NCBI RefSeq assembly: GCF_029873635.1 | Contig: NC_080422.1 | Span: 11,873,764 to 11,937,763 of the forward strand | Direction: 5' to 3' | DNA length: 64,000 bases | Source of the DNA: Malania oleifera | Lineage: Eukaryota; Streptophyta; Magnoliopsida; Santalales; Ximeniaceae | Shown here: positions 13,706 to 54,209 of the stretch, piece by piece | Numbering within the stretch: the stretch's first letter is position 1 | How the letters are laid out: each line of letters opens with the position of its first letter | The notes under the pieces: model-generated | Told to the model about the DNA's origin: nothing | The model's input: the letters and a program-made list of their open reading frames with translations, nothing else | Databases searched by the model: none | Program-made: the position numbers and the translations under genes

Positions 13706-13710
13706 TTTTG

Positions 13711-13950
13711 TGTTGACTTTTTGAGTCCAATCTCTATTTTGATATTGACAAACACAAGTGTCTCATGTGTGTGTCTAGTATTTTTAACAAGTTCATAATT
13801 CGGAATGTACACACAAAAGAGGAAGATCACATCATCCTAACTGTTCCATGAAGACTTGAAAAGCAAAAGAAGAAGAAGACATTTATTACATTTGTATTGC
13901 ATTTAATTTTTATTTTTGGTCTGTAATAATGCATTTATCTGCATGATATG
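13711..13950 (+). mobile_element. Outer solo LTR 'a', left part
   Basis: It starts TGTTGACTTTTTGAGTCC, preceded by TTTTG (13706-13710). After 240 bases it is cut by LTR b, which begins with a similar TGTTGACTCTGTGAGTCCG. Its right part is at 52492-54204, about 38.5 kb away, followed by a second TTTTG at 54205-54209. The matched 5-bp duplication and the in-register continuation show this is one LTR of about 1.95 kb split by later insertions. Confidence 0.82.
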
Positions 13951-15005
13951 TGTTGACTCTGTGAGTCCGATCTCTGTTTTGATGCTGACAAAACACTATG
14001 AACTTATGTGTGTATTTAGCATGTGCACAGGTCTTTAATTGAGATCACACATAAAGGACAAGGAGTATAGAGACCAAGACAGATTATACACGTTCACCTG
14101 GCATACTTCATTAAGTGAAGAGCATGAAGACTAAAGAAATTTCTATTTTTATTGTAATTGCATTTAGTTTTCGGGTTTGTAATAACGGACTGTATTATTT
14201 GCATGTCACGCATGATAGGGTATATGCTCAAAAGACCATAGACTGACTATAGGTCCCAAATCATTGCATGAAAAAGCCCCCTATAACTTAGCATTAACAA
14301 ATATGTGATTAGGGGTGTCTTCAAAAGGGAGTTAGAACTTGAATGGACAAAGTTGGTGTGTTCGGTTGACCAAACCCCAACACACAGAAACACTTCGGTC
14401 GACCGAACCTCCTCAGGGTCAAAAAGTTGACCACTTGGTCGACCATCTTAAAATGAATATCAATGCCCTGGTCGACCGGACTAGCATGTGGGAAATCCCA
14501 ACATCCTGGCCGACCAAACCTTTAGGTTTAATATGACTTGGTCGACCGAATACATGAAGTTTGGTCAACCGAACTAAATCTGGTCGACCGAACCTTGGAG
14601 TTCAAAAATTGCCTTAAGTCTGGTCGACCATCACTGCAGTTCAAAAATACTCTCGTTGACCGAATTGAGCAACCTGGTCGATCGAACCTTAAAAATGGTT
14701 GATCAACCCTCTCGGGTTGTCCAATTTTTATTGAAGTTAAACTAGGTTATTTTTAATTAAACTCACTTAATCTTTTTTAAAAATACCCAGCGTGTCTCCA
14801 ACAGCTATAATTTCTCCCAACTCTATAATTACTTCCTCATTTGCAAAATTAAGAGATAATTAGGATTTTGAGATTAGCCAAATTTCTCTGAAAATCATTT
14901 TGGCCAAAATCATTCATACTCCTATATTTCTTCAAATATATTGCCAAAATCCACTTCCTATATTCATCTAGCCATTTATTTTGAGTGAGATTGGTTTGTC
15001 ATACT
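13951..15005 (+). mobile_element. Second-level solo LTR 'b', left part
   Basis: It starts TGTTGACTCTGTGAGTCCG after ATATG (13946-13950). Its end is at 52491, followed by ATATG (52492-52496). It is interrupted at 15005 by element E and resumes at 51756; some of its own sequence may have been lost at that right junction. The left part holds the GTCGAC-type motif array and a weak TATA-like CTATAATTA near 14823. No coding capacity. Confidence 0.82.
14390..14700 (+). promoter_or_regulatory. Array of GGTCGACCGAAC-like motifs in LTR b
   Basis: About a dozen exact or degenerate copies of a GGTCGACCGAAC motif occur at irregular spacing, roughly 20-45 bases apart; exact GTCGAC cores are near 14398, 14438, 14472, 14541, 14583 and 14624. 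The same kind of array is found in LTR c (49780-50300) and LTR a (52505-52950). It sits between the LTR start and the TATA region, so it falls in U3. Possible transcription-factor sites or methylation targets; function inferred only from position. Confidence 0.6.
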
Positions 15006-15334
15006 TGTAGACACCCTATTTTTGCCTGAACATATTAGGGTTTTGGGAAGAAAGCTTATAAAAAGGCTCTTACGGGGGCACTCACACACAGTCGTGGGGG
15101 GAGGAGACAAAAAAACAAAAAACAAAAAAAAAAGACCTAGGCCTCTTATCTCTTCCCTCTCTTTTCCATGCACAGCCTCCCTTCTTGCTAGCCATCTCCA
15201 TCTTTTCTCCATCTCGCAGCCCCTCACAGGCTCACTTGCAACCGCCACCCCACCTCTCTCTCTCTTCCATCTCTCTTCCCTTTTCTCTTACTGTCACCCC
15301 CGCACACATAGCAGCACACCTACCAAGCTGCTCC
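15006..15334 (+). repeat. Element E 5' LTR, first part (U3 and TATA)
   Basis: Bases 15006-15334 match 47761-48112 of the 3' LTR. A TATA box (CTTATAAAAAGGC, near 15055) lies only about 50 bases from the LTR start, so U3 is very short and most of this long LTR would be transcribed leader. The segment ends GCTCC, the target site of Tekay-1. Confidence 0.82.
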
Positions 15335-15411
15335 TGTGATGACCCGAAGAATAATAGTATTTAAATAATGATTAAAAGGGTGGAAAATGGAGACAATAAT
15401 AGAAGGAGGAA

Positions 15412-15645
15412 GTCGACGACATTGCACTTTGGAAGGAATAACTGAGAGAAGTTATCAGGGCCTCATCGACGAACACGGGGGATTCGTCGACGAGGGTATA
15501 AGAGGACCTCGTCGACGAAGACACGATTCGTCGACGAGGAAATACCAAGAGAGGTTTTGAATAGACTGAATTTCGTTGACAAGGAGTGACTTTCATCGAC
15601 GAAATTATTGAAGGACTCGTCGACGAGATGACGTGGCTCATCGAC
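15412..15645 (+). promoter_or_regulatory. Array of TCGTCGACGA palindromes in Tekay U3
   Basis: Eight to nine exact or near-exact copies of the 10-bp palindrome TCGTCGACGA occur; exact GTCGAC cores are at 15412, 15486, 15511, 15530 and 15619. They end immediately before the TATA box. Equivalent arrays lie at 22510-22770, 34675-34865, 41630-41800 and 45880-46050, in each case next to the TATA box on the U3 side. The constant position in five LTRs argues for a cis-regulatory role; the binding factor is unknown. Confidence 0.7.
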
Positions 15646-15654
15646 GAATCCAAT

Positions 15655-15663
15655 CCTATAAAT
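15655..15663 (+). promoter_or_regulatory. TATA box of Tekay-1 5' LTR
   Basis: CTATAAATA at the end of the palindrome array; the CT-rich transcribed leader starts about 50 bases downstream. The same box occurs in the 3' LTR at about 22774-22782. Confidence 0.7.
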
Positions 15664-15712
15664 ATCAAAAACCCGAATTTAAATGTCAAAAATTAGCAAA
15701 ATTTCACACACA

Positions 15713-15746
<34 letters not shown>

Positions 15747-17418
15747 ATTCGGTTTCTCTCTCTCTTCTATCTTCGATTTTAGGCCGGATTTCCGCCGGTT
15801 CGACGATTTGAAGGCACCACGATACTTTTGGGGAAGTTCTCTCTGAATCTGCCGGAGCGGATCATTGGTAAAAGCAAGTTGGAAATCATCCCTCAGTTGA
15901 GGTAAGACTTTTTAAGTCAAATTTGGTCTTACAGTAGTTATAGGAAATGATATACACGTGAAAATACTGAAGTTTAGTACTGAGAGTTTTCATTTTCAGG
16001 GTATTGATTAGGAAATCCTACGGGTGTGAGACTAGTGTTTAAAGGGGCTTTTCTCAATCGTCAGGTAAGAGAATAAACTAAAACAGTTATTTTTCATGCA
16101 AATTATTATTATGTATGAGTAAATTTACTTTCAGAAAAGCATGTATTATATTTGTATATTACGAAGGAAATTGTACATTTGGGAAAAATACTGCTAATAT
16201 GTTGAAATGAATCTGTGTGTATGAGATGTCAAAAACTATGATTTGAGAATACAATGTATGGTTTTATATAGCAAATGTGTGGCATGAATATTATTTTACG
16301 AGGAAAATATCATGATATGGCAATCATATAAATGAAAAATATTTTGATAAATTATGAAAGAATATAGTACATTATGATGTTGAAATTACATGATAAATTG
16401 ATTATTTTCAGAATGATATACATATATGAAATGATTTTGGCGCGAGGTCGTATTTATGTATGATTTCAGCGCGAGGTCATATTTATGAGACGATCGGCAC
16501 GAGGCCGTATTTATGAAATTATGAAAGATGCTATATTATCATGTACTATATGTTATCAGAACCCAGATATTAGTTTAGTTCAGTTCAGGAGGTCGGTACC
16601 GTAATTTACAGATTAGATATCTATGATCAGATTGTTGCTAACCACCCCAAGAGGGGGTGGGAGATGGATAGTCGATGTGGCTTTCAGTAGAGTGTGGACG
16701 TCCACCTGGCAGTCCGGACCAGGGTGTGGCGGACCCATTGTACTTACAGACATTTTTGACTCGGCAGTGGTCGACCAGCCATTGTCGGGTCCCGCCTTCG
16801 GGTTGCACAACCCGTCATGGGAGGGGGGTAATACATGACATCAACTAACTATTCATCCTGAGTATGTTTTCAGTATTACCAGTTATAATAGATGTTTTAT
16901 GTACGATATGATTTATTAGCAAATATGAAAGTATATGATTATTCAGTACGATATGATGAATGTTTACAGAAATGTGAAATGTACTTTATATGTATAATTG
17001 CCTTAAATGTTCATGTTACCACACAACTGTATTTAGTTTATTTTCCTTTACTAAGAAGTGTCTCACCCCCGAACTTAATTAATTTTTTAGGAGACCCTGA
17101 GAGACCAGTGGGTCGTGGCTGCTGTTGAGCTTATTGAGTTACCCTACTAGGAGGGTAAGATTCTGATATAGAAGCAGGAGATTTTTGTTGTATGATCCTA
17201 GGATTAATTTGATTTTGGAGATTGTATATAAATACAGTATATTGATGATGTAGTAAACTCTGGTATTATGTTTTATGATTGGATGATTGAGATTTTACAC
17301 TTACTGCTGCTTAAGTTTCCGCTGTGATTGACAGGTATTCCCGCTACCCACGGGTTCAGGTTGATTTTTCTATTTAATATATTTCATTTTATATTAAGAT
17401 TTTTAAGGTCGTTACAGT

Positions 17419-17432
17419 TTAGTATCAGAGCC
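17419..17432 (+). other. Tekay-1 primer-binding site (initiator tRNA-Met type)
   Basis: TTAGTATCAGAGCC starts two bases after the LTR end. It is one change away from the TGGTATCAGAGC primer-binding site complementary to the 3' end of initiator methionine tRNA, usual for Tekay elements. Confidence 0.75.
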
Positions 17433-17709
17433 TAGGATACTAGGTTCTGTAAACTCTAGAGTGCAGCAGTAATAATACCAGAGTATAGGTTAAGAGGATT
17501 TGAGGTCTGATTTTGTAGTTTAGATGCAAGACTTTCGTGGTGGGTTGTGTGATTTTCCTGGGGTGACGATTTCAGGAAATTCAAATTATCGTCGGGTTGG
17601 GTATCTAGGTTGCAAGATTGAACCTCAAATTAAGATCAGAAGAATATATTATATGATTTGAGTAATATGTATAGTGAAGGGGTTCTGAGTTAAGTTATTT
17701 GTTTTCAGG

Positions 17710-18760
17710 ATGGACCCTGGTGGCAATAGTGCGCACGCTAGTGGAAGTGAGGGTGCTGGACCCTCAGGCACCGCGGGTAGTGATTCAGATGCTGTCTTAC
17801 GTAGCGTGGCACAACAGGTTATGACATAAATTGCCAGGAGTTCGAGGGAACAGGGTGGTCCATTGGCAAGCCATAGTAGTTCGATAGAGAAATTCATAAA
17901 GATGAATCCTCCAGCTTTCTTAGGGGGAATGAAACCTGTAGTTGCTGAAAACTGGGTGCAGGAGGTAGAGAAAGTGTTTGCAGTACTACAGTGTTTGAAG
18001 GAGCAGAGGGTACTATTTGCCACATATAAACTGACTGGAGAGGCCGAGAGATGGTGGTCGGCGGTGATATTATTAGAGCAGCAGAGGACTGTACTTGTGG
18101 AGATGACGTGGGAGTGGTTTAAAGAAATATTCTTCAACAGGAATTTTCCAGCCTCGTTCAGGGAGGCTAAGATTGAGGAGTTCCTGAATCTGAAGTAGGG
18201 ACAGGTGTCAATGCAGCAGTATGCGACGAGGTTCATCAAGTTATCTCGCTTCGCCCGTACATCATTCCAGATGAGGTGAAGAAGGTACGATAGTTTGAAA
18301 GAGGCCCGAGGAAAGAAATTTATAAGCAGGTATCGATACTGAAGTTGCAGGACTTCGCCGAGCTAGTTGACTGAGCTATTATAGCAAAAATTGGTGATCG
18401 GTTGGAGGCCGAGGAGCAGAGACAGAAGAAGAGATCTGCACCTTCCGGTTCCTAGTAGGGAGTCAGCCGTGCTTCATGGAAAAGAGGTGTTTATTATAGA
18501 GACCGGAGACAGGAGATTGGGAATCGCGGTTTCTAGGGTGTGCAGCCATCTCCATCTTACCCATCTTGCAGGAAGAGACACCTGGGGGAGTGTCGTGCTG
18601 GGCGGGGTGTCTGCTACAGGTGTGGGGAGTCAGGACATATGATGAGGGAGTGTCCGACACAGATTGGTGCTGCCCCTGCTCCTAGACCTACTCGAGCAGG
18701 TTACCAGGTGCCACGGGGAGGCCAGCAGAGGAATATGGCCCCAGCCAAGGTTTTTTATTT
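17710..18760 (+). pseudogene. Tekay-1 gag pseudogene
   Basis: The ATG at 17710 starts MDPGGNSAHASGSEG. A retrotransposon gag capsid region (KMNPPAFLGGMKP, AENWVQEVEKVF, LTGEAERWW) lies at about 17880-18200. A CCHC zinc knuckle (CYRCGESGHMMREC) that binds RNA lies at 18612-18653. Stops interrupt it at 17827-17829 (TAA) and 18196-18198 (TAG), with more between 18270 and 18530, and the knuckle is in a different frame from the start. The start is chosen because the same MDPGGNSAHASG opening occurs in Tekay-2. Gag would form the virus-like particle; this copy cannot. Confidence 0.85.
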
Positions 18761-21700
18761 GACGTTGAGCGATGCTAAGGCGGCCGGCGACGTGGTGAGA
18801 GGTACGGTTAATATGTTTTCATTTAAAGTTATTACACTTTTTGATTCTAGTGCCACACATTCGTTTGTGTCCTTGGGATGTGTTAAATTATGTGGGGTTG
18901 AAACACACTCACTAGGTGTCGAGTTATTAGTGGCTACACCGACCGGGTCAGCGGTGAGATGTAGTAGGATGCTTTATGGTTGCCTAGTTGATGTTCAGGG
19001 AAGAATTTTATCTGCTGATTTGGTGGTGCTAGATATGCACGGGTTTGACATCATCTTCGGCATGGATTGGCTAGCAGCTAATTCTGTTATTATAGATTGT
19101 CGTGCAAGGGAAGTGATATTCAGACCTCTAGGAAAATTAGAATTCAGATTTACAGGGTCACGAGTGCAATCTTTACCTCGGATAGTCTCATCTGTTTAGG
19201 CGAGGAGACTGCTCCAGAGTGGCTGTTAGGGATTTGTGACTTTTGTGAAGGAAATGTCAGAAAATGAATTAAAGCTTATCAATATATCTGTGGTGAAAGA
19301 ATTTACAGATGTGTTCCTAGATGAATTACCAGGTTTGTCGCCTGATCGTGAGGTAGATTTCCCTATTGATCTACTTCCAAGTACAACGTCGATCTCTAAA
19401 GCACCGTACGGAATGGCGCCAGTAGAGTTAGCAGAACTGAAAGATCAGTTGTAAGATTTTCTTGATAAGGGCCTTATACGACCTAGTGTATCTCCGTGGG
19501 AAGCTCCAGTACTGTTTGTGAAAAAGAAGGACGAGTCTATGAGGATATGTCTAGATTACAGGAAGATTAATAAGGTGACTATTAAGAATAAGTATCCTCT
19601 ACCCCGTATCGATGATTTGTTTGATCAGCTCCATGGTACACGGGTATATTCTAAGATTGATCTCAGGTCAGGTTACCATCAGGTAAAAGTGAAAGCAGAA
19701 GACGTCTTGAAGACGACCTTCAAGACCAGGTACGGGCATTACGAGTTTCTTGTTATGCCATTTGGTTTGACGAATGCTCCTGTGGTATTTATGAACTTGA
19801 TGAACAAAGTCTTCTACCAATACCTAGACCAGTTTGTTGTTGTTTTTATTAATGATGTACTAGTTTATTCGAGGAGCTATGAGGAGCATGAGACGCACTT
19901 GAGGCAGGTTTTGCAGACACTTCGGGAAAAGAAATTGTACGCCAAGTTCAGTAAATGTGAATTTTGGCTTGAGAAGGTTGTGTTCTTGGGGCATGTTGTA
20001 TCTGGAGATGGTATTTCTGTGGATCCTAGTAAAATTGAGGCGGTAGTGAATTGGGCTAAACCGATGAACGTCCAGGAGATCATGAGTTTCTTGGGGTTAG
20101 CTGGTTCTTACCATCATTTCTTTGAGGGGTACTCAGCTTTATCAGGACCTCTGACACGACTGATTAGGAAGAATGCCAGATTTGAATGGGACGATAGTTG
20201 TGAGCAAAATTTTCAAGAACTGAAGTAGAGGTTAGTTACAGCGCCTGTATTGATCATCCCGTTTGGGGGTGAGGGTTATACTATTTACAGTGATACGTCC
20301 TTGAAGGGACTTGACTGTGTACTGATGCAGCATGATAGGGTGGTGACATATGCATCAAGACAGTTAAAAGAATACGAAAAGAACTACCCTACCCATGATC
20401 TTGAATTGGCTGTAGTGGTACACGAATTGAAAATTTGGAGGCATTATCTGTACGGTGAGCAGTGTGAAATTTTTTCCGACCACAAGAGTTTAAAGTATTT
20501 CTTCACCCAGAAGGAATTGAATATGAGACAGATAATATGGTTAGAGTTAATTAAAGATTTTGATTGTACTATCAATTACCACTTAGGGAAAGCAAAAGTA
20601 GTAGCTGATGCACTGAGCAGGAAGTCTGGGGAATAAGTGTTGGCAGTTATGGAGATCCAGCGCCCGATCATGATGGATCTAGAGAGACTCGGCATTGAAT
20701 TGATGGAGAGTAATATTCCAGTATGTATCGCCAGCCTAGTGGTACAGCCTACTCTGCAGGAAAGAATTAAAGCCGCCCAGAAAGAAGATCCAAAATTGGT
20801 AGAGGTAATGGACAGAGTGCAGAGTGGTCAGGGAGAGGAATTTTGCATTTCAGATGACGGAGTTTTGCGGTTGCGTTCCAGACTGTATGTTCCTGCTGAT
20901 GCTGACGTTAGAAGGACTATTTTAGAGGAGGCTCACAGACCCTTGCATGCGGTTCATCCCGGTAGTACGAAAATGTACAGAGATCTGCGAGAGTTTTACT
21001 AGTGGAGTGGTATGAAGAGGGAGATCGTCGAGTATGTAGCCCAGTGTTTGACGTGCCAACAGGTAAAAGCTGAGCACTAGAGCGGGTCTGTTGCAGCCGC
21101 TATTTATCTTAGAGTAGAAGTGAGATCATATATCCATGGACTTCGTTTTAGGGCTGCCGTCGACATCTCATGGCTAGAATGCGATTTGGGTAATAGTAGA
21201 CTGATTGACTAAGTTCGCCCATTTTCTCCCTATCAAGATCAGCTACTCCCTTGGCCGATTGGTAGAGATTTACGTTCAGGGGATAGTTCGTTCCCATGGA
21301 GTACCAATATCCATAGTGTCAGATCGAGACCCGCGTTTCACGTCACAATTTTGGAGGAGCTTGTAGGAGGCTCTGGGGTCTCAGTTATCGTTTAGCATGA
21401 CATTCCATCCTCAGTCAGACGGACAGACTGAGAGGACGATACAGATACTAGAAGATATGCTCCGTGCATGTGTATTAGATTTTGGGGGTAGCTGGACTCA
21501 GTTCATGCTACTGGTGGAGTTCGCGTATAATAACAGTTACCAGTCCAGTATTGGCATGACACCGTTTAAGGCCTTGTACGGTAGGAGATGTGGATCTCCT
21601 TTGTATTGGGACGAGATAGGTGATTGGTGAGTTATGGGACCAGAGCTGGTACAGCAGGCGTACGATAAGGGTCGGCTTATCAGGGAAAGAATCAGTGCAT

Positions 21701-22186
21701 CTCAGAGCCAACAGAAGAGTTATGCCGACAATCGCCGCAAGAATTTGGAGTTTGATGTGGGTGATCACGTATTTTTGAAGATAGCTCTGTTAAAAGGAGT
21801 TATGAGGTTTGGTAGGAAGGGTACACTTAGCCCTAGGTTTATCGGTTCATTTGAGATTTTAGAGAAAGTGGGGCCGATGGCCTATAGGCTAGCTTTGCCA
21901 CCTACACTATCTAGGATGCACGACGTTCCACGTATCTATGTTGAGGAAATACGTTCTAGATCCTTCTCATATTATCATCTATGGTGAGTTAGAGCTCAGT
22001 GATTCACTAGTCTATGAGGAGGTACCAGTGCAGATTCTGGAAAAAAAGGAACAAAAACTACGTAATAAGAAGATTCCTCTAGTAAAGGTTCTATGGAGGA
22101 ATCATGTAGTAGAAGAGGCTTCTTGGGAACTCGGGGAGCAGATCAGACAAAAATACCCGCAACTGTTCCAGGAAGATCAGATGTAA
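18761..22186 (+). pseudogene. Tekay-1 pol pseudogene (PR, RT, RNase H, INT, chromodomain)
   Basis: In order: protease near 18800-19110 with the active-site triplet reading DSS instead of DSG (18843); RT at about 19470-20100, where the catalytic motif reads FIND (19845-19856) instead of FIDD, so one metal-binding aspartate is lost; RNase H (20250-20630, with IYSDTS, HDLELA and FSDHKSL); integrase with an HHCC finger (about 20930-21065) and core ([17 protein letters not shown]); and a C-terminal chromodomain at about 22010-22180 (YEEVPVQIL, VKVLWRNH, EASWE). The chromodomain marks it as a chromovirus, which tends to target heterochromatin. Stops at 19197, 19452, 20226, 20634 and 21000 and at least two frameshifts disable it. 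Confidence 0.88.
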
Positions 22187-22426
22187 TTAAGAAATGTGAG
22201 TAATATGTAATGTTTCTTTTGCAGGTACATGTAATATTCTAGTAGTAAGAGGTATTTTAGTTTTAAGGGAAAATTTTCTTTTGTATGTGTAATCTCTCAA
22301 GACTTGAAATGTAATCACGGTATTCCTCCGCCATAAGTAAGGGTAAGTAATAAAATAAGTAGACCATTTTGCCTACTAAGGGATGATAAATTACGTGAAT
22401 AGAAAATTTCAAGGACGAAATTTTAT

Positions 22427-22439
22427 AAGGAGGGGAAAA
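22427..22439 (+). other. Tekay-1 polypurine tract
   Basis: AAGGAGGGGAAAA lies directly before the 3' LTR start at 22440. It primes plus-strand DNA synthesis in LTR retrotransposons. The same block (reversed) adjoins the Tekay-2 3' LTR. Confidence 0.85.
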
Positions 22440-24005
22440 TGTGATGACCTGGCAAATAATAGTATTTAAATAATGATTAAGAGGGTGAAAAATGGAGACA
22501 ATAACAGAAGGAGGAAGTCGATTTCGTCGACGAACGCGAATGCACTTTGGAAGGAATAACCGAGAGAAGTTATCAGGGTCTCATCGATGAACACAGGGGA
22601 TTCGTCGACGAGGGTATAAGAGGATCTCGTCGACGAAGACAAGATTCGTCGACAAGGAAATACCGAGAGAGGTTTTGAGCAGACTGAATTTCGTTGACAA
22701 GGAGTAGCTTTCGTCGACGAAATTATTGAAGGACTTGTCGACGAGATGACGTGACTCGTCGACGAATCTAGTCTTATAAATATCAAAAACCCGGATTTAA
22801 ACGTAAAAAATTAGCAAAATTTCACTCTCTCTCTCTCTCTCTCTCTCTCCATTCGGTTTCTCTCTCTTCTCTCTTTGATTTCGGGCCGAATTTTCGCCTG
22901 TTCGACGATCTGAAACCACCACGACGCTCTTGGGGAAGTTCTCTCCGAATCCGTTGGAGTGGATCGTTGGTAAAAGCAAGTTGGAAATCATCCCTAAGTT
23001 GAGGTAAGACTTTTTAAGCCAAATTTGGTCTTACGGTAGTTATAGGAAATGATATACACGTGAAAATACTGAAGTTTAATACTGAGAGTTTTCATTTTCA
23101 GGGTATTGATTAGGAAATCCTACGGGTGTGAGACCAGAGTTTAAAGGGGCTTTTCTCAGTTGTCAAGTAAGAGAATAAACTAAAGCAGTTATTTTTCATG
23201 CAAATTATTATTATGTATAAGTAATTTTACTTTCATAAAAGCATGTATTATATCTGTATATTACGAAGGAAATTGTACATTTGGGAAAAATACTGCTAAT
23301 ATGTTGAAATGAATCTGTATGTATGAGATGTCAAAAACTATGATTTTAGAATACAATGTATGGTTTTATACAGCAAATGTGTGGCATGAATATTATTTTA
23401 CAAGGAAAATATCATGATATGGCAATGATATGAATGAAAAATATTTTGAGAAATTATGAAAGAATACAGTACATTATGATGTTGAAAGTACATGATAAAT
23501 TGATTATTTTCAGAATGATATACATATATGAAATGATTTCGGCGCGAGGTCGTATTTATGTATGATTTCGGCGCGAGGCCGTATTTATGAAACGATCGGC
23601 ACGAGGCCGTATTTATGAAATTATGAAAGATGCTATATTATTATGTACTATATGTTATCAGAACCCGGATGTTAGTTTAGTTCAGTTCAGGAGGTCGGTA
23701 CCGTAACTTACAGATCAGATATCTATGATCAGATTGGTGCTAACCACCCCAGGAGGGGGTGAGAGATGGATAGTCGATGTGGCTTTTAGTAGAGTGTGGA
23801 CATCCACCTGACAGTCCGGACCAGGGTGTGGCGGACCCATCATACTTACAGACATTTTTGACTTGGCAGTGGTCTGCCAGCCATTGTCGGGTCCCGCCTT
23901 CGGGCTGCACAACCCGTCATGGGGGGGAGTAATACTTGACATTAGCTAGTTATTCATCCTGGGTATGTTTTCAGTATTACCAATTATAACAGATGTTTTA
24001 TGTAT

Positions 24006-27580: not shown

Positions 27581-27661
<81 letters not shown>

Positions 27662-39970: not shown

Positions 39971-39971
39971 T

Positions 39972-41152: not shown

Positions 41153-41195
<43 letters not shown>

Positions 41196-41856: not shown

Positions 41857-43947
41857 TTACTCGTCGATCATAGAAGCTAAAATACTAGATTAGCAAGCTT
41901 TTGATTATCCAATCCTTTTCATATGATGTGCTTTTGTTTTCCTTATTGTTGTTTTCCTTTTGTAATCCGTTGATGCCTTTGTCTCGGAAGATTTTCTTTC
42001 ATCAATAAAATGAATTAAGCATTTCATTATATCACTTGCATCATAAGTTCAGTTGCCAAATTTTGTTTGCTTACGTTTCATGCGGGAATAAGGAAAGTAA
42101 CATTGCCAGTATTCACGAGCCGGAAAGATATGTTAATTTTGAAAATTTCATCCAAGAGGCAGAAGTAGAGAAGGATGAAACAATCGTTCTCACCTTATTG
42201 AATTCAGATGTTATGAAGAAGTATTTTACTCTCTAAGGAATGGAACGAAGTGGTTGTGTTGTTTCGACAATTACATGTCAGTTCATCACTTATGTTTTGA
42301 TCAAATGATAGATGATCATCTTTGGCCAACTAGTTATCTATAAAAAGAACCAAATATTGATTTACCATTTGTTAACCTATTTGAACCTGATTATTAAACC
42401 AATTTTTCTTAAAAGTCAGTTCACCAGAAATTTAACTTGTGTTTGGATGCCTTAACGTTTGGCGAGTCGTTCGAGACAATAATTATTACCAAAAGGATGG
42501 TAGACCATTTTTCAACTACCCAAAAGAAAGGAAAAGAAGAAATCTCTTACAAGCCCTTTTGAACTTAAAAAAATTTCAATTCTTGATTAACCAGTCAAAG
42601 GATCACACCCCACACTTGGACAGTTTTAAAAAGATCAGTCCCAAATGAGGTTAAAATAAAATGCTAAAATGTCCTTCATGAAAGGAAAAACAGAAAGTGT
42701 AGTAAAAGAAGAATATGTAAGAAAAATAGAGAAAAAAAGAAAGAAAAATAAGCAACATGATTCATATGTGATCTTTGACTAGCGAATACCTGCGATGAGA
42801 TTAATAAATTTTGAGCCTTATTTAAATATTTCTTTCTTTAACCCATACCCCTAGTCTACATTATGATTCAAATGAAAGTCCTAACCAGATTGGTATACAT
42901 TGTTGTCTCAAATAATTTGTCAGACTCAATGTTGAGTCTGAACTACGTAATAACCTGATCCTGAAAAGGTATGTAGGCAGCTTGTTTAAATGACAAGTTC
43001 GATCAATATCTTGCAAAGCGCCTCAACTCTAACTGGGGGCATAAAACGTCATTATGAGATAGAATTTTTGAGCTTTAGTTTCCCTTTTATTCTGAAAACC
43101 TATATCTTTAAGCCTACGTTTTGTCTCAAGTCTTAAAGACCATCTTGAGATCAAAACATGGATTGAACTTGATTAAACTAAAGACAATAGTTAAATGAGA
43201 GATTTCCAGTGGTTTCATAGTAGAAGAGGAAAAGTGATCCTTGAAAAGACTAGGGCATTTGGTAAAAAGAAAGAATCAGTCATTCAATTGGATACATTAA
43301 CATCAACGTCATATGACTTTTGAATATTTGTATGAATTTTTCTTGTGATAGTATTGAAACATGGTAAAACATTTATTTTGTGCGCGTTACCTTTTGACTT
43401 AGTAAAGTGATGTCCTAATTGCATAATCATTCTAAAAAAAAAAACCTTCTTAATCTTCAAAGTGTTAAAAGAGGATGGGTAGTCAAAGGGTTTCAAAATC
43501 ATCAGTAGTTTCTATAAAGAAGATCTCTGTAAAGGAAGAACAGTCTAACTGGGGCAAATGTCATGTCAAGTTTTAGAGATCTGCTAACATCAGGGTCAAG
43601 ATCAGTGACAAATAAATTCAACTGGGACAAATTCCGAGTTGAGTTTCAGTGGGACCTATTTAAGCACATTCTTATAAGATTGAAGTATGAAAACAGGGTC
43701 AAGATCAACTATAGATCCATTCAACTGAGGCAGATTTTGTGATTGAGTTTTATTTGTGCAAAGTGAATCACCTTCATGACCGGATGAATCAAGAAAATTG
43801 AGCCAAGATCAGTTACAGATCCATTCAAATGCGGTAAGTTTCATGTAGAAATTCAAAAAAATGGCCAAAATAAAAGATGAGGTTATTGATCATAGGCGCG
43901 CTAGGAGAAAAAATTCATGCATTGCCATGCATTTCATCCACCACCAT
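41857..43947 (+). other. Element E internal region, non-coding
   Basis: After the TTACT duplication, E resumes. Short open frames (42036-42236, 42439-42648) show no motif I recognise. No protease, RT or integrase motif is visible on either strand. The end of the stretch carries the 106-bp repeat described separately. Confidence 0.6.
43590..43850. repeat. About 106-bp degenerate tandem repeat (about 2.5-3 copies)
   Basis: The blocks GGGTCAAGATCAGTGACA, GGGTCAAGATCAACTATAGA and AGCCAAGATCAGTTACAGA recur at about 106-base spacing. Each is followed by TTCAACTGGGACA-like sequence. Confidence 0.6.
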
Positions 43948-43971
43948 TGTAATGACCTCAAATTCTTACCA

Positions 43972-44021
<50 letters not shown>

Positions 44022-44866
44022 GTGTATTAACATTCATACCTAAACAGCGGAAACACAAATCATACAACCATTTAGATTTATGCAAAACAACACCAGAATC
44101 CAATATCTACAAACCATAGCCATACAAAAATGTCCTTCTATCATCATCTACTCAAAAATATACCCAACTCTATCAAAAACTCACCCTAAATCAGGGTGAT
44201 CAAACACTCACTCTATCCGCGAGCCTGATCTACTCGCTTAATTGGATCACCTGAAAAATGTTAGAGTAATGGGATGAGTCGACGCTCAGTAAGTGGAAAT
44301 ATGCTATTACTAGTGTGTGACGGCTAAGTTAAGAATACTTTTAAAAATAGCAACTAAATTGTAATGCAACAATTTGTAAAATACATCTTTCAAGCATGTC
44401 TATCTTTCTCAATTTAAATTATATTGTATCATCTGTATTTTCTACTTTTCATACTGATAATATCATACTATATTCATCATACACTGTAATACTGTATACA
44501 TATACATAACTGTGCTTTATCCCTGAGACTTTGTACGTCATGATTTGACCCCTCATGATAGGGTTGTGCGGCCCATAGGCGAGACTTCATTTGGTCGGCC
44601 CTCCAGATAAGTCAATATACTCTACACTATCTCAGTCCGGCCAAACTGCATCCTCTCCTAGGCGTGGGACTGGCTACTACCTCGTCTAACTGGCCCCCTC
44701 TACCCAGCGTACTGGGGAGCTGCATCCTCTCCGAACACAGTTAGACGATACCCACATACTATCTGAGATATGTGGTTGTACTCTATCTGTATATAGCAAC
44801 GGTACCGTGCTCTGTAACTGTATCTGTATTGTGTCTGTCTATAATCTTTCCACAGGGATCTGATAC

Positions 44867-44898
<32 letters not shown>

Positions 44899-46129
44899 TT
44901 CTTTTACTGTTTTCGCCATGTTCCAAAATTACCATAATGCTATCTTTATGTACTGTATATATACTATAAAACTGTATACTGCATCCGTAGCATCTTGATG
45001 CTACCTTTGTATCTCTGTTTGTATATTCTGTATGTTATGGTAATAGGAACATGACATGCTAAAACTCTGTGTGTACTGTTCTGTATAAAACTGTAATATA
45101 AATATTGATCTGAATAAAACTGTATGCATGTATACATATATATGTATCTATCTGTTTCATGAAATTGTTCATAAGAATACTGTATATGCATGTAAATCTC
45201 TCTGTATAGTCTCTGTGAATACATCTCTATATCTACACCTGTATATTCTGTATAATTTCATATACTAAGAAGAACCATATAAACTGTACATACTGTCTAC
45301 TTCCATGCATTCCGTATAGTATGATATATATTATAAAACCTATATAAATTACTTCATCTCATGAAAATCACTTAGGTCACACAATCATTTAAACTCATAT
45401 TTGATAAAAATTGTATAATAAACTAGCATGAATATACATCTATAAAATCTTTGTTAACTTTATTAAAACTCCTAGCATAGCATATTTCTCTTACCTTAAC
45501 TTTGAAAAGTCCCTATATAATGCTGGCTCTATACCCGCAGGATTCTTAATTCAACATCCTGAAAACACAATATCCTAAAACAAAATATTAGTATTTTTCC
45601 GCCTACATCATTTCCTATAACTGTCATAAGATCAAAATCTGGAAAAAAGACCTTACCCTAAATTTGGGATGAAATTCAACTTTGTTTTCCCAACGATCTG
45701 CTCCGGTAAACTTGTAGAGAACTCCGCCAGGAGCGTCGTGGTAGCTTCGGATCGTCGATCCGGCAACTGGTAGGGCCGGAATCGAAGAGAGATGGGAAAG
45801 GATTCGTAGAGAGAGAGAGGGGGGGGGGCATTGGTAAATGGATAAAAATCCTGGTTTTCAAATATTTATACTATCAGATTCATCGACGAGACATGTCACC
45901 TCGTCGACGAGTCCTTCATTAAATTCGTCGACGAAGCCCCATGTTCGTCGACGAAATTCAGGCTACCCTCAGAACTCCTCTCGGTACTTTCTTGTCGACG
46001 AAGCCCTGTGTTCGTCGACGAAATCCTTTATGCCCTCGTCGACGAACACAACTATGAGCTTCTTCTGTTTTTGCTTCCCTTTTCCTCTCTTTTAATATTT
46101 AAATATCGTTATTTTTCCGGGTCGTTACA
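43948..46129 (-). mobile_element. Solo Tekay-type LTR in element E
   Basis: ACCAT is at both flanks (43943-43947 and 46130-46134). The 2182-base segment starts TGTAATGACC and ends GGGTCGTTACA on the plus strand, and is similar to the Tekay-2 LTR along its length. On the minus strand the GTCGAC-type array (46050-45880) precedes a TATA-like TATAAATA near 45872-45864. No internal domain, so it is a solo LTR from intra-element recombination. (TA)n tracts lie at 43978-44019 and 44873-44898. Confidence 0.88.
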
Positions 46130-46191
46130 ACCATACATTTCATGCAGTACTATACATTTCATATATTGCATAGAAAAATAAATGAATACAT

Positions 46192-46440
46192 ATAGCAACA
46201 TATCCCTGCATTCTAACATCACAAGTTAGCAACATACATGCATATAACAACATATCATTGCATTCTAGCATCACGAGTTAGCAACATGCATACATATAGC
46301 AATATATCCCTGCATTCTAGCATCACAAGTTAGCAACATGCATGCATATAGCAATATATCACTGCATACTAGCATCACAAGTTAGCAACATGCATGCATA
46401 TAGTAACATATCACTGTAGTCTGGCATCACAAGCAGTAAT
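46192..46440. repeat. 52-bp tandem repeat (about 4.7 copies) in element E
   Basis: Units contain TATCCCTGCATTCTAGCATC and ACAAGTTAGCAACATGCATG and recur at 46201, 46253, 46305, 46357 and 46409. Confidence 0.85.
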
Positions 46441-46530
46441 AGAGCTTCCTTCACACTTGTCTTGTTGAATAAGTTTTTGAAATGATCATTTGGCATCCTG
46501 GACTGAGCAATTCCGGTTGTGCTAATATTT

Positions 46531-46650
46531 GAAACTGGGGCAACCGACCCCAGGCATACATTGATTTACCTAGAAACTGGGGTAGCTGACCCTAGATACA
46601 CATTGATTTATTTTGAAATAGGGGCAGCAGATCCCAAAGACAAGTGGATT
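46531..46650. repeat. 42-bp tandem repeat (about 3 copies) in element E
   Basis: GAAACTGGGGCAACCGACCC-type units start at 46531, 46573 and 46615. The CTGGGG-type motif resembles the non-coding blocks at 43540-43840. Confidence 0.7.
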
Positions 46651-46745
46651 CATTCATTGAAATCAAGGCCCTACACCCAAGTGGATTTCCCCAATAGAGT
46701 AACCATTTTTCAAACTTTGGTTTCACACCTTATTACTGCTTGAAG

Positions 46746-47557
46746 TGGCTCGGATCCTCGTATCCGCTACGGCACAGATTCTTACATTCGCAGCAAGTCA
46801 TTATTGTGTCTTATGGCTCAGATCATCGTATTAGCTATGACTCGGATTCTTACATTCGAAGTAAGCCATTATTATGTCTTATGGCTCAACTCATCGTATC
46901 CGCTACGATTCGGATTCTTACATTCGAAGCAAATCACCATTGTGTCGTATGGCTCGGATCATCATATTCGCTACGGTTCAGATTCTTACATTCGCAGCAA
47001 GTCAGCATTGTATCGTGTAGTTCAGATCATCGTATCCGCTATGGCTCGGATTTTTACATTCGAAGCAAGCCACCATTGTGTCGTATGGCTCGAATCATCG
47101 TATCTGCTACGATTCAGATTCTTACATTCGCAGCAAGTCATCATTGTGTCGTATGACTTGGATCATCGTATCCACTACGGCTCAGATTCTTACATTCGAA
47201 GCAAGCCACCATTGTGTCGTATGACTCGGATCATCGTATCCGCTACGGCTCGGATTCTTACATTCGAAGCAAGCCACCATTGTATTGTATGGTTCAGATC
47301 ATCATATCCGCTGCGACTCAGATTCTTACATTTGCAATAAGCTATCATTGTGTTGTATGGCTCAGATCATCGTATCCGCTACGGCTCAGATTCTTACATT
47401 CGCAATAAACCATCATTGTGTCATGTGGCTCGGATCATCATATGCGCTACGACTCTGATTCTTACATTCCAAGCAAGCCATCATTGTGTCGTGTGGCTCG
47501 GATCCCCGTATCTGCCTCGGCCTGGATTCTTACATGCAGTGCAAGTCAATGCTGCAT
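46746..47557. repeat. 68-bp tandem repeat (12 copies) in the 3' region of element E
   Basis: Twelve units of 68 bases follow head to tail, each with TGGCTCGGATCATCGTATCC and CGGATTCTTACATTCG. A half-unit resemblance (GGCTCGGATCATCG and GGCTCGGATTCTTAC) shows an older internal duplication. Variants CGAAGCAAGCCACC and CGCAGCAAGTCA are interspersed. Sixty-eight is not a multiple of three, so a single frame reads a repeat only every 204 bases; the open frames of up to 178 codons here are artefacts of few stop codons in the unit. Confidence 0.92.
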
Positions 47558-47747
47558 ACTCCCCACTTGGATTCTTAGATTTAGTGCAAATCATCCCTAG
47601 TTGGTAGAAACAAACGACACTTGATTAACCTGAAAGCCATAGGTAGTTGTATGACCTGGCTAAAATAAGTATCTTTTATCTTTGCAGGCTTGTTGCTATA
47701 AAAACATAGGAAAGTTCCTATCGTTACATTGAAGCAACAAAGCCTAC

Positions 47748-47760
47748 AAAGAGGGATAAC
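47748..47760 (+). other. Element E polypurine tract
   Basis: ACAAAGAGGGATAAC lies immediately before the TGTAGACACCC start of the 3' LTR. Confidence 0.65.
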
Positions 47761-50700
47761 TGTAGACACCCTATTTTTACTCGGACCAAATATAATAAAG
47801 AGTTTTTTATTATTATTATTATTAGGGTTTAGGGAAGAAAACTTATTAAAAGGCTTTTAGGGGGCACTCACACACACAACCGTGGGGGGGGGGGGGGAGA
47901 CAAAAAAAAAAAGAAAAAGGCCTAGGCCTCTCATCTCTTCCCTCTCTTTTCCACGCACAGCCTCCCTTCTCGCCAGCCATCTCCATCTCGCAGCCCCTCA
48001 CGGTCTCACTTGCAACCGCCACCCCACCTCTCTCTCTCTTTCTTCAATCTCTCTTCCCTTTTCTCTCACCGTCACCCTCGCACGCGCAGTAGCACACTTA
48101 CCAAGCTGCTCCATTCTCTCTCGCCATCACGCTCACCATCTGCAACACTGCACGTCCTCACCCTCACAGCTTGAGAACCTTAACAATAGCCATGAACTAA
48201 GCATGACCACCCTCGCCACCAAACTCCGGCAACCGCACCTCCATCGGAAGCCACCCTCCAACTCCGGTAGTCACCCACACTGCTGCGCCCAGTCGTAATC
48301 ACCATCACCACCTTCCACCCCGTTTCCGTAGCCACCTCATGGCTAATCTTCGACTCCTGCAAACTCAGCCACGACCCATCAACAACAGCAGCTCCGACGA
48401 TCTTCCATCCAGCATCACCATTATGACAACCTCTTCTAGCCCCGTTCGCCAACACCCCCCTATCGCGAGTTCCTTGGTAAACTCCTCTCCATATGCACCC
48501 ACACACACACATACACACTCACACAGAGCATGCATAGGTATATAAATAATAAATATATATATATATATATATTCATTTTGGTTTTGAGTTTCAAAATTTT
48601 AATTTTTTAATTTTTTTTACTGTATGTGTTGTGCCTATTGAATGGTTGAGTTTATATATGTATCTAATGTTAATTTATTTATTTATTTATTTTATTGCAG
48701 GATTTTTTTCCTCTTCTTTTGTAATAATGTATATTCAAGTATTATGTATACATCTAACCTCATTTTTTTTTTATTGCAAGATTTTCTTTCTTTTTATAAT
48801 AATATTGATTCAGGGTATATATATAACGTTATTTCATTGCAGGAGTTTTTTTTTTTTTTTAGAATAATATTTATTTAGGTGCAATATATATATATATACA
48901 TATCTGACGTCAATTTGTTTTTTTTTTATTGCAGGTTTTTTTCTTCTTTCTGTGATAATATTTATTCAGGTTTTTATTTTTAGGGTATTGACTATGCATG
49001 TTAAATAATGAATATATATTAGGATACAATATTTAACAGTAGATGTTGAGTAAGTATTATTCATACTCATGGTTATATTTATTCAGGGTGTTTGTCATTA
49101 CGACATATGTTTAATGTTTAACGTTTATATGTTTAGGGATGTGTAGTATTTTTGGTGACCATACTGAATAAGTATATATTATTTTTAGAAATAACTCGTT
49201 TCCTTAACTTTACTACTTCCTTGCCCTCTCATTAGTTTCCATATTTTAACCCTAAGTTTGATTTGTTTCCCTAGTTAATGGTTTACAAATGTGTGTATTG
49301 TGCATATCCTTAATTGTATGTTAATATTAAAGATAACTATTATATTATTGAAACATGTATATTATTATTATTATTATTACCATTATTACGTTTATCATTA
49401 TTAATATTATTATTATTGTTACTATTACTATTATTTATTGTTATTATTATATTTGTCATTATTATTAATATTATTATTACTAATATTATCATTATTGTTG
49501 ACCTTATAGGTCACATCCGATTTTAATAATGACAAATACTCTAGTATTTGATAGCTTTCAAGTTTGTGTGCAAGTTTATATTAGCAAATCAATTGATGGC
49601 ACACAAAGTAAAGCCTGAAGACCCTGAAGACTATTTCTTGTTGTAATTTATATTATTTGGGCCTGTAATAATTTATATCAGTCTATAATAATATCTGCAT
49701 GTCATACATGTAGGTTTTGTAAGCTCAAAAATGACCGTAAATTGATCATAGGGACTGAATGACCTTAGGGCACACTTCAGTCGACCGAAGGTCAATCGAC
49801 GCTATGTTTTTGGGAGACCTTAGTAAGACCTTAGAACCCAATACTAATGCACATATATCATATAGAATTTAGGAGTGTTAAATATAAATTGAATTGAATA
49901 TTATAGGAAAATTTAAGAGAGCTGGGGTGGTCGAACCCTAGGAGTTCAAAATTCTTTGAGTGCCCGGACTGTTGAAAAGTCAACAGATGACCTAGCTCTC
50001 GGGCAATTGAACCATTTCTATGCGTATCTTCCACGAGTGCCTGAACCCTCTAAAAGGGACCCCTCACCAACTCGGGCTACTAAGGAATTTAGTTCAAAAT
50101 AGGTCACGGGTGACCGAACACGTGCGTTTGGGCTACCGAACATAGTATCGGGCACTTGAACCTACGAACAAATGTTTCTGACTTTTGTTCAAGTTATCGA
50201 ACCTACACTCAGGCCGCCGAAATGTTTTTAAGGATTTTTAAAAAAATGAGTCTGGTTGGGCGACCGAACCTCGATTCAGCCACTCAAACCTTGTCGGGTT
50301 AAAATTATTTTAACTAAGGTAAATACAAGTTAATTTGGGTTAATACTTCCTAAGCATTTTAGAACTTTTCTAATAATACTGAAGGTCCCAAACGATTATA
50401 TTTTTTACCTTACCTATAAATATAGGCTCATTTGTGAGGATTAGTAACAATTAGCAAAAATCATTAGTGCAAAATCCTCTCTTTTTCAAAAACTCATTGC
50501 CCAAAATAATCTCAAATACTTATTCTCATGATACATTTTAGCATTGTGAGAGTTTATTGAGTGGACTAATGCTTATTAGAGGTTGCTTATACTCCCATTA
50601 TTTTTCTTGATTGATTGTTATTGTTTTTAGGGAGTCAAGCAAGAGTTTTCCCATAGATTTTTATTTGATAAATCTAGTGTTGGGAAAAACTCATTAGCTT

Positions 50701-51755
50701 AAGGATCTTTGCATTGTTATTGCAAAGATTCCTATAGCTTGATTTTGTTGTATAAAATATTTTTAACAAGCTATTATTTTGTTTTTCAAACAGCTCTTGA
50801 GCCTACTTTCTTGAAGAAAATATTTTGAGTTGTTTTGAATATTTGCAGCATCTTTGAAACCCTGATTTACTATTGAGATTTGATATATATTGTTTCAAAG
50901 AAATAGCTTGATTAGAACACTCTTGATCATATTAGTAATAATACCTTGTTGAGTGTTGCTTGCACAAAATCACATCACTGACCTTACATTTCCTATATGG
51001 TTGATGTGTGATTGATTAAGTATACTGTGCGTATTGTAGTACATACCTGCTTAGTTGAGAAGCACATTTCCGTGTACGTCAAATTCCATATTTGTTGTAT
51101 TTTAGGTGCAGGTCTGAAGAGGGAGACTAGCCCTGTAGAATAGTCCCGATCTGGCTTAGACCCGATTAGGAAAGCTAGGTGCGCTATCCTGGTAAGGTAT
51201 GTTGGTTGAAGTCAACCCCTTGAATTGACCTAGTTGTAACAGGTGTCGCTCCACCCGTTAAGTGAGTGGTAGTGGAATCCTTGTACTAGTGTAGCCAAGG
51301 CGGGGACGTAGGCAGTATTGACTGAACCCCGATAACATATCGTGCGGTTTCTTTACAATTCTGCAATTTATTTACTGTACCTATATGTTTTATTGTGAAT
51401 GATTGAGTTTATTTTTGCATAGATAGACCCTAGGTTGCGTCACACTGCTGATCTTGTTTAACCTAGGAAGAATTTAAAATACCCAAATCACCCCCCTCTT
51501 GGAATACACCAAAACTAACAATTATCACTATTATCATTATTATTATTTCTATTATTAGTTATTATTATCATTATTATTATTATTATTCATTTTTTGAAGT
51601 ATAGGTATATTCAATTCCGTTATTTTGAGTATTTGTATTAATTTGTTATTATTTTAGTATTGTGATATTTTTGTTATTAAATATTTTCGATTTTTTCCCT
51701 ATGATTGCAATAAAAAGGGTACAAGCTTTTTTAAACTTCACGTACCTCATTTATG
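47761..51755 (+). repeat. Element E 3' LTR, truncated and split by LTR c
   Basis: Bases 47761-49495 and 51526-51755 match the 5' LTR up to 28813. The last 370-380 bases of the LTR are missing; sequence switches to LTR b at 51756. It contains the uninterrupted form of the Tekay-1 target (48108-48120). A minus-strand open frame (48518-48180) corresponds to one in the other LTR but is not supported as a gene. Confidence 0.82.
49496..51520 (+). mobile_element. Solo LTR 'c' (copia-type), inserted in the E 3' LTR
   Basis: ATTAT is at both flanks (49491-49495 and 51521-51525). The LTR starts TGTTGACC, ends AAAACTAACA and is 2025 bases long. A GGTCGACCGAAC-like array (49780-50300) precedes a strong TATA (CTATAAATATAGGC, 50414-50427). 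The 3' part (51100-51310), with GAAGAGGGAGACTAGCCCTG, matches LTR b at 52074-52255. No coding region. The LTR style (TGTTG...CACCCCCCTCTTGG...AACA) suggests SIRE-like copia; no internal domain is available to prove it. Confidence 0.85.
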
Positions 51756-52491
51756 AGCTTTAAACCCTATTATTTTAAGTTTTACATTTGAAAAACATTA
51801 TTGTGATATTTGGTTAAGGTTATAGAGAGCTTTTGATTAATTACATTACAAGCACATTATCTTAAAATCAAAAATTTTACTCTCACATACACACTTTGAC
51901 ATACATACTGTTGAGAGTTAACACATTAGTTAACAAAATCTCACTTGAGTTTAATATCCTATCATATATAAGTGCATTAATTGATTAAGCATAGTGGTAC
52001 ATATCTGCTTAGCGTAAGAAGCACATTTTTTTGTACATAAATTTGATTATTTGTTGTATTCTAGGCGTAGACCTGAAGAGGGAGACTTGCCCTGTAAAAA
52101 GTCTTGAATTGGCTTTAATCCGATTAGGAAAGTTAGGTGCACCATCTTGGTAAGGTGTTGTATTCGATGTCGCTCCACCTGTGAAGTGAGCCCTTAGAGG
52201 AATCCTCTTACTTGTGAGCTTGAGACGAAGACATAGGCAGTATAGGCCGAACCCCGATAACATATCGTGCGTGTACTTTATATTTTCGCAATTTATTTTC
52301 TACACTTTCATTTTCAACATATGTATGTTACATGCCAGATTCATTATATGCTTCATATGTGTTGATTAGATTTACGATTAGTTAGACAGACCCTAGGTTG
52401 TGGTTTTACTGCTGCTGGAGTTTAGTTGAACGTAGACATAAATTTTTAAATACTCAATTCACCCCCTCTTGGGAATACATCAATTTCAACA
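51756..52491 (+). mobile_element. Solo LTR 'b', right part
   Basis: Resumes directly after the truncated E LTR and ends CAATTTCAACA, followed by ATATG (52492-52496), the duplicate of 13946-13950. The segment 52074-52255 matches LTR c 51115-51310. Confidence 0.8.
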
Positions 52492-54204
52492 ATATGACTT
52501 AATGCTCAGATCGACCATAGACAAACCTTAAGGCAGGTCGACTAACGTTGGATTTTTTGGTTTTTAAATAGTCCCGGTCGACCAACCAAGTAACGTTTAA
52601 ATCACCACGATTAACCGAACACACTGTAGGCTAGAAGTCAAAATGTTGACCATGTCTCGAGCGACCAACCTAAAATGAACATACCTTCCACGGTCGACCG
52701 AACCATGAAACATGGGTTTTCCACCTACCCCGGCCGACCGACCTTATGGGTCAAAAACACCTCACTCAACCGACCCTTATAAACCGGCAGACCAGCCTTA
52801 TGTTCGAGCGACCGAACTTATGAAGGTTTGGCAAATTGCATTAGCTCAGCCAACCGATCATTACCCACAGCTAACCAAACCTATTTCTGAAAACAAATTG
52901 GTTGTGAGTGTTCGATCAACCGACATTGAAGGTTAGCCGACCGAACCTCTCAGGTTCCAAATTTTTTAAGGGATTAAATGTAATCAATTTTTAATTAAAC
53001 GATTTGAAAAATACCCAACGAGTCCCTAACGGCCATATTTTTCTAAAAAACTATATATGTCCCTTCATAAGCTTAGATTAGTAATTTTGATTAGCAAATA
53101 ATTTTCTCTCAAATATTTTTAATCTCTTATTAATCAAAATTACCCCACTTATATTTTTATTGCAAAATCATTGTTGGGATAAAATTTTTATATTCTCCAA
53201 ACTCTCTTTATTTATTACTCTATAGAAAATCTTTTGAAAGAGAACATATACTTTTGTTTGGGCATTTTGTTTTTTTTTCAAAACCACTTACTCTCTCAAG
53301 CCTTCGCTTTTGTAAATCAATCTTTGAGAGTAAGATTAAAGGTTTTTCACATTATTTTGCTTTGATAAATATTTTTGTGGATAAATTTTTATTTGGGTTT
53401 AAATCTTTACTGTGCATACATATACATTATTTTTCAAAGATTGAAAATGTTATTACGAGAAAAACACCCTTAATCTCTGAGCAATATTTTATATCATTAG
53501 AGTGTGCATTTTGAGCTTAAACATGTATATCTTTACTAGTATTTTTTAAAAGCATTTCATATATACAAAAAATATTTTTATTGCACTAGTTAGGTTCATC
53601 CCGTAAATTGAATAGGAGAGTTTCCACCCCGTAGGGGGGACCAATTAGTTTCAGCCCGAAAATTGAATTAGGGATTTTCCGCTCCGTAAGAGAGACCAGT
53701 TCGGCTCAACCTAATAATTGAACTGGAGTATTTCTCGTTCTGTAAAGAGAGGTGTGAAGGTTGGGGTCAGCCCTATTAATTTGACTTGGGGTTTACCTGC
53801 CCCCGTGAGGAAATGTTGTAAACAGCTTCTACTCTCTCCGTTTAAGTGAGCAGAAACAGTGGAATCCTTGGGAATATGTCCAAGGCGAGAAGATAGGCTG
53901 ATTCGGTCGAATCTCAATAACAAATATCATGTGTTCCTCTTTCCTTATCTCATTTAATTTCTCCACTTTAATTTTCATACGTATATGTTTGTTCATTTAC
54001 AGTTATAATCATTTGCATGCACACATTCAATTTAAATGAGATTTGCGGCACTCATGTATGTATGTATTTATTTTTCAATTTTTTTACAAACACGTGTATA
54101 TTTTGAATGAAATATGATATGTGGTGAATCGACGCTTACTTTAAATTAACCAAAAAATTTTGAAACCCAATTCACCCCCTATTGGAATCATACTAATTCC
54201 AACA
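52492..54204 (+). mobile_element. Outer solo LTR 'a', right part
   Basis: Continues from 13950 and ends ACTAATTCCAACA, followed by TTTTG (54205-54209). It holds a GGTCGACCGAAC-like motif array (52505-52950), a TATA candidate CTATATATG (53051-53059), and three GGTTCAGCCC/GTAAAGAGAG-type imperfect repeats at 53590-53800. No genes. Confidence 0.8.
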
Positions 54205-54209
54205 TTTTG

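What the first reader, a model, noticed from the sequence alone, without database searches (positions are those of the whole stretch)
13706..54209. Five-level nest of LTR elements, readable from its target-site duplications
Seen: LTR a starts at 13711 after TTTTG and its end at 54204 is followed by TTTTG. LTR b starts at 13951 after ATATG and its end at 52491 is followed by ATATG. Between them, E starts at 15006 and is itself entered by Tekay-1 (GCTCC/ACTTC), Tekay-2 (TTACT), a solo LTR (ACCAT) and LTR c (ATTAT); Tekay-1 holds another solo LTR (TGTAT/TGTAC). The pieces of each LTR join in register after removal. The order of events is therefore a, b, E, then Tekay-1, then the solo LTR in its 3' LTR. 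About 40.5 kb between two host genes comes from repeated self-insertion at one spot.
Basis: partly seen in the sequence, partly recalled or inferred. Interest (0 to 1): 0.85.

Follow-up and report, generated by a model that had tools for sequence, protein, structure and literature searches.

The report
Nested plant retrotransposons, five layers deep
A 40-kb stretch of what looks like a plant chromosome was built by jumping genes landing inside older jumping genes, five layers deep; this is a real but ordinary pattern, in which one layer has also lost part of its edge and seems to belong to a family without its own copying enzyme.

Summary
The nest is real. The window lies in a 1.49-Gb genome. 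Outermost a (solo LTR, TSD TTTTG) holds b (ATATG), which holds E, which holds Tekay-like T1, T2, a solo LTR and c; T1 holds a further solo LTR: five levels. Of eight insertions, six have an empty-site comparison that fits (sister LTR or other genomic copies), E in b has one that shows a deletion, and a has none.

One claim fails: E and b do not join in register. E has no TSD. Of 29 relatives of b, 28 carry 138-201 bases missing here. E's 3' LTR stops 375 bases short of its end at 29190. A deletion of about 570 bases across the E/b border explains both.

LTR distances are E 0.095, T2 0.087, T1 0.072. They agree with the nesting, but E and T2 are not separable (z 0.8).

E has gag but no detected pol. 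Four of four relatives checked share its layout after gag, so it looks like a gag-only family.

Nested LTR elements are long known; wheat 3B reaches eight layers (PMC4290129, passages). Interest is low.

The parts
13706..13710 (.). TSD of a, left (TTTTG)
13711..13950 (+). LTR a, 5' piece (last 5 bases = TSD ATATG of b)
13951..15005 (+). LTR b, 5' piece
15006..15334 (+). E 5' LTR, first piece (last 5 bases GCTCC = left TSD of T1)
15335..17416 (+). T1 5' LTR
17417..22439 (+). T1 internal region: parts of gag, protease, RT, RNase H and integrase, weak Chromo match; in several separate open frames
22440..24005 (+). T1 3' LTR, first piece (ends with TGTAT)
24006..26536 (-). Inner solo LTR, Tekay-like, inside T1's 3' LTR
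26537..27052 (+). T1 3' LTR, second piece (starts with TGTAC)
27053..27057 (.). Right TSD of T1, decayed (ACTTC)
   Evidence: the sister LTR reads GCTCC
27058..29190 (+). E 5' LTR, second piece; LTR end at 29190
29191..32799 (+). E internal: leader with 42-bp tandem repeats, gag remnant about 31220-32725; last 5 bases TTACT = left TSD of T2
32800..41856 (-). T2, Tekay-like element (LTRs 32800-34923 and 39972-41856)
41857..43947 (+). E internal, stretch after gag without detected coding domains (starts with TTACT, ends with ACCAT)
43948..46129 (-). Solo LTR, Tekay-like, in E
46130..47760 (+). E 3' untranslated region with 52-bp and 68-bp tandem repeats
47761..49495 (+). E 3' LTR, first piece (last 5 bases ATTAT = left TSD of c)
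49496..51520 (+). LTR c (solo LTR) in E's 3' LTR
51521..51757 (+). E 3' LTR, last surviving piece; the part corresponding to 28816-29190 is missing after it
51758..52491 (+). LTR b, 3' piece; about 197 bases of b missing before it
52492..54204 (+). LTR a, 3' piece (starts with TSD ATATG)
54205..54209 (.). TSD of a, right (TTTTG)

Best explanation
This is a five-layer nest of LTR retrotransposons formed by ordinary, independent insertions that leave 5-bp TSDs. Recombination between the two LTRs of an element left a, b, c and two Tekay-like elements as single LTRs. An illegitimate deletion of about 570 bases then removed the end of E's 3' LTR, E's right TSD copy and about 197 bases of b. Shown: nesting order, TSDs, empty sites, missing sequence. 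Inferred: that one deletion removed both sequences; that the solo LTRs were once full elements; that E moved with proteins supplied by a pol-bearing relative (no such partner was looked for).
For: TSDs and termini. Empty sites in sister LTRs: T1, the inner solo LTR and c. Empty sites in relatives: b in a, 5 of 29 non-self relatives abut exactly (L047, L048, L054, L056, L059); T2 in E, 4 of 4; the solo LTR in E, 2 of the 3 that reach it. Deletion: 28 of 29 b relatives carry 138-201 bases absent here, 25 of them 190-201. The two LTRs of an E relative part company at the equivalent of 29188, whereas the window's 3' LTR stops at the equivalent of 28815. LTR distances: E 0.0951 +- 0.0075, T2 0.0866 +- 0.0073, T1 0.0722 +- 0.0063. 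Gag-only E: no pol domain in the E ORFs scanned. tblastn of T1 protease, RT and RNase H finds T2 (positive control, E 3e-132 for RT) but nothing at E 1 or below in three E pieces and four relatives' stretches. One relative's open frame matches Retrotrans_gag at 1.5e-8.
Against: T1's TSD matches at only 3 of 5 bases. E has no TSD, so its insertion into b rests on its TG start lying where b's match to relatives stops, and on b resuming right after E. E and T2 distances are not separable (z 0.81). E's LTR distance varies along its length (0.087, 0.088 and 0.139 in three pieces), and part of it is low-complexity. The empty site of a was not seen. 24 of 29 a relatives showed no abutting match. At the solo LTR in E one of three relatives (L075) has no match to the right flank. 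One b relative (L035) lacks the extra bases through a deletion of its own.
Confidence: 0.93

Rival explanations
1. The E/b border is not a later deletion: E inserted abnormally in one event, with loss of target bases and an incomplete 3' LTR end.
For: E has no TSD. Both losses sit at one border. Only about 2 bases of microhomology (AG) are visible when searches are compared.
Against: E's 5' end is intact and starts with TG, and some 2 kb of the 3' LTR is kept. Partial LTR deletion by illegitimate recombination is described in plants (PMC7251063, introduction passage).
Confidence: 0.15
2. Some junctions are assembly joins between repeats.
For: The region is highly repetitive, and no reads were available.
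Against: Seven elements have 5-base duplications at their ends, two of them decayed by substitutions, and other copies show sites without the insert. A misjoin would not create these.
Confidence: 0.03
3. E is an ordinary pol-bearing Ty3 element that lost pol in this copy only.
For: The window copy is damaged in other ways.
Against: Four of four relatives run from gag straight into the same stretch. They are the 2nd, 4th, 9th and 17th of 43 listed places; the rest were not read.
Confidence: 0.05

Closest known systems
Nested LTR-retrotransposon clusters of large plant genomes (maize, recalled; bread wheat 3B, PMC4290129, passages)
   Same: Elements inside elements, 5-bp TSDs, solo LTRs, truncations
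   Different: Nothing in kind; five layers here, up to eight layers and clusters up to 301 kb in wheat 3B
Tekay-type chromoviruses (Ty3/gypsy)
   Same: T1 and T2 have Ty3-type protease, RT, RNase H and integrase-region domains; T1 has a Met-tRNA-like primer site (recalled) after its 5' LTR and a weak Chromo match
   Different: Clade not tested by a tree; the Chromo match is below Pfam's cut-off
TR-GAG non-autonomous LTR elements (PMC6022998, passages)
   Same: E and the relatives examined have gag and no detected pol
   Different: No whole-family survey; five copies looked at, the window's included
Tat/Ogre lineage (PMC7004042 and PMC6317226, passages)
   Same: Tandem repeats in the 3' untranslated region before the 3' LTR; long LTRs
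   Different: No pol, so the second RNase H of the Tat lineage cannot be tested

Membership tests
Nested LTR-retrotransposon cluster | Host element pieces flank the insert, with a TSD at the insertion point | tested here: met
   Met for a, b, T2, the solo LTR in E and c exactly, for T1 and the inner solo LTR in decayed form
Nested LTR-retrotransposon cluster | E inserted in b with a TSD | tested here: not met
   ATACT/CTTTA; deletion across the border
Nested LTR-retrotransposon cluster | Empty site in independent copies | tested here: met
   Six of eight insertions fit; E in b shows a deletion; a not available
Nested LTR-retrotransposon cluster | Inner element younger than host by LTR divergence | tested here: inconclusive
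   T1 below E by z 2.3; T2 and E not separable, z 0.8
Tekay chromovirus (T1, T2) | Ty3-type pol domains | tested here: met
Tekay chromovirus (T1, T2) | Chromodomain after integrase | tested here: inconclusive
   T1 Chromo E 0.0016, 18.8 bits against cut-off 25.1; none in the T2 ORFs scanned, which did not cover all of T2
Tekay chromovirus (T1, T2) | Clade placement by RT/integrase tree | not tested
   No reference set was used
TR-GAG (E) | LTRs plus gag | tested here: met
   LTRs in the window and one relative; gag by Pfam in one relative, the window's own fragments gave no Pfam match but align with it
TR-GAG (E) | No RT or integrase in the family | tested here: inconclusive
   No RT found in the window copy and the post-gag stretches of four relatives; integrase was not used as a tblastn query and most copies were not read
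Tat/Ogre (E) | Second (archaeal-type) RNase H | not testable with these tools
   No pol found in E
Tat/Ogre (E) | Tandem repeats in the 3' UTR | tested here: met
   52-bp and 68-bp arrays; suggestive only

The most novel reading that the evidence does not exclude
E belongs to a numerous gag-only LTR family (possibly Tat/Ogre-derived), spread by a pol-bearing partner and old enough to have diverged subfamilies. It would be a good case for asking why gag is kept while pol is lost.
Probability: 0.55. Interest if true: 0.3.

Novelty: new member of a known kind. Interest (0 to 1): 0.17.

Why it matters
It illustrates the layered growth and erosion of plant intergenic DNA, with a relative order that does not depend on a molecular clock. 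It also shows that TSDs alone misread one layer: without comparison to other copies the E/b deletion is invisible. The gag-only E family is the part that could reward further study.

Tried and rejected
Tried: reading E as a clean insertion into b. Rejected because relatives of b carry extra bases there and E's LTR is longer than its 3' copy. Tried: looking for the missing b bases elsewhere in the window; in the 16 relatives compared they match only the corresponding parts of c and a, plus two short reverse-strand matches for L013. Tried: E gag by Pfam on the window's own fragments, no match; a relative's open frame matched. Tried: tRNA genes in the window, none. Considered: misassembly and abnormal insertion (see rivals). 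first gave LTR distances with borders off by up to six bases; one search repeats them with the corrected borders, and the change is under 0.001. The rates used for ages (1.3e-8 and 7e-9 per site per year) are recalled, so ages are rough: T1 2.8 or 5.2 Myr, T2 3.3 or 6.2, E 3.7 or 6.8. LTR age order is itself weak evidence: 1042 of 4126 nested pairs in 15 plants show the reverse order (PMC7251063, abstract and passages). The names Tekay, Tat/Ogre, LINE and tRNA-Met primer site rest partly on recall. c and the solo LTRs were not assigned to a lineage.

Full report
Setting. The window is G000:C6:11873764-11937763 of a 1.49-Gb genome. The retroelement types suggest a plant (recalled), but the species was not identified. 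Self-comparison of the window gives the repeat map on which the rest builds.

Layers. a (13711-54204) has TSD TTTTG; b (13951-52491) ATATG; c (49496-51520) ATTAT; T2 (32800-41856) TTACT; the solo LTR 43948-46129 ACCAT. T1 (15335-27052) has GCTCC/ACTTC and the inner solo LTR (24006-26536) TGTAT/TGTAC. In the uninterrupted sister LTRs these sites read GCTCC and TGTAC, and all three differing bases are transitions, so these are decayed duplications in the right place.

Independent empty sites. b in a: of 29 non-self relatives of a's first 235 bases, five have a's 3' piece starting at 52492 where the 5' piece ends, with a 4-5 base overlap as expected of a TSD (L047, L048, L054, L056, L059). Of the other 24, five show no match to the 3' piece and the rest match only from further in. 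T1 in E, c in E and the inner solo LTR in T1: the sister LTR in the window lacks the insert. T2 in E: four of four relatives run across the site (L069 and L070 with an 8-base overlap, L076 with 6, around TTACT; L075 by spacing). The solo LTR in E: L069 and L070 run across it, but in a short CATTTCATGCA-type repeat, so exact register is not shown. L075 reaches the site but has no match to the right flank, and L076 does not reach it. a: no empty site available.

The E/b border. E starts with TGTAGACACC where b's match to relatives ends, but there is no TSD. Of 29 non-self relatives of b, 28 have 138-201 bases between the two b pieces that the window lacks, 25 of them 190-201; the remaining one, L035, has a deletion of its own. 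In an E relative on C1 the 5' and 3' LTRs (L072, L074) are alike up to the equivalent of window 29188, and the window's 5' LTR reads CA at 29189-29190, so the LTR ends there. One hit also stops at 29190. The window's 3' LTR stops at the equivalent of 28815. So 375 bases of E, about 197 of b and E's right TSD copy are gone. One illegitimate deletion is the simplest reading; about two bases of microhomology are visible. This contradicts the finding's statement that the pieces of each LTR join in register.

Dates. Kimura distances between LTR pairs, taken piece by piece: T1 0.0722 +- 0.0063 (2063 sites), T2 0.0866 +- 0.0073 (1875), E 0.0951 +- 0.0075 (1908; its three pieces give 0.139, 0.087 and 0.088). 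Nothing inner is older than its host; E exceeds T1 by z 2.3 and T2 by only z 0.8. Such tests are weak, since 1042 of 4126 nested pairs in 15 plants show the reverse order (PMC7251063, abstract and passages).

What the elements are. T1 and T2 carry Ty3-type gag, protease, RT and RNase H parts and the integrase-region SH3 domain, spread over several open frames. T1 has a Chromo match below the cut-off. E has a gag remnant, 42-bp tandem repeats in its leader and 52-bp and 68-bp arrays before its 3' LTR. No pol was found: Pfam on the E ORFs scanned gives no pol domain, and tblastn with T1's protease, RT and RNase H finds nothing in E's 7.3 kb of internal sequence or in the stretches of four relatives, while it finds T2. 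Integrase was not used as a query. The four relatives (2nd, 4th, 9th and 17th of 43 listed places) share the step from gag to the stretch 41857-43947, so the lack of pol is probably a family trait and not this copy's accident. The gag search saw 2135 first-look candidates, of which 40 were scored; the family is probably numerous, but its size was not measured. Gag-only elements are a described class, TR-GAG (PMC6022998, passages), and 3' tandem repeats are common in Tat/Ogre elements (PMC7004042, passages). After the LTR end, 8 of 26 b relatives continue with ATTGGTATCAGAGCC at two or fewer mismatches, a tRNA-Met-type primer site (recalled). So b is the LTR of a family with full elements.

Verdict. 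A genuine, well-preserved five-layer nest, ordinary for a large plant genome: wheat chromosome 3B has 30,199 reconstructed nested insertions, up to eight layers and clusters up to 301 kb (PMC4290129, passages).

Noticed in passing
window 2178-8166: Direct repeats of 1.35 kb, 97.3% alike (K2P 0.027), around Copia-type RT on the minus strand. As delimited, the repeats lack TG..CA ends and a TSD, so the borders or origin are unclear.
   Followed up: partly
window 12089-12633, minus strand: Reverse transcriptase remnants (RVT_1), LINE-like by recall, about 1 kb left of the nest; ORFs at 9781-10269 gave no Pfam match.
   Followed up: partly
window 20-247 and 56403-57785: Aquaporin-like exon (MIP) at the left edge and a long WD40 ORF 2.2 kb right of the nest.
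   Followed up: partly
window 60135-60680 and 63637-63972, minus strand: Two further Copia-type RT (RVT_2) remnants right of the WD40 ORF, the first below the curated cut-off.
   Followed up: no
window 46746-47535; L073: The 68-bp array of the E family is at least about twice as long in the relative L073 as here, so array length varies between copies.
   Followed up: partly
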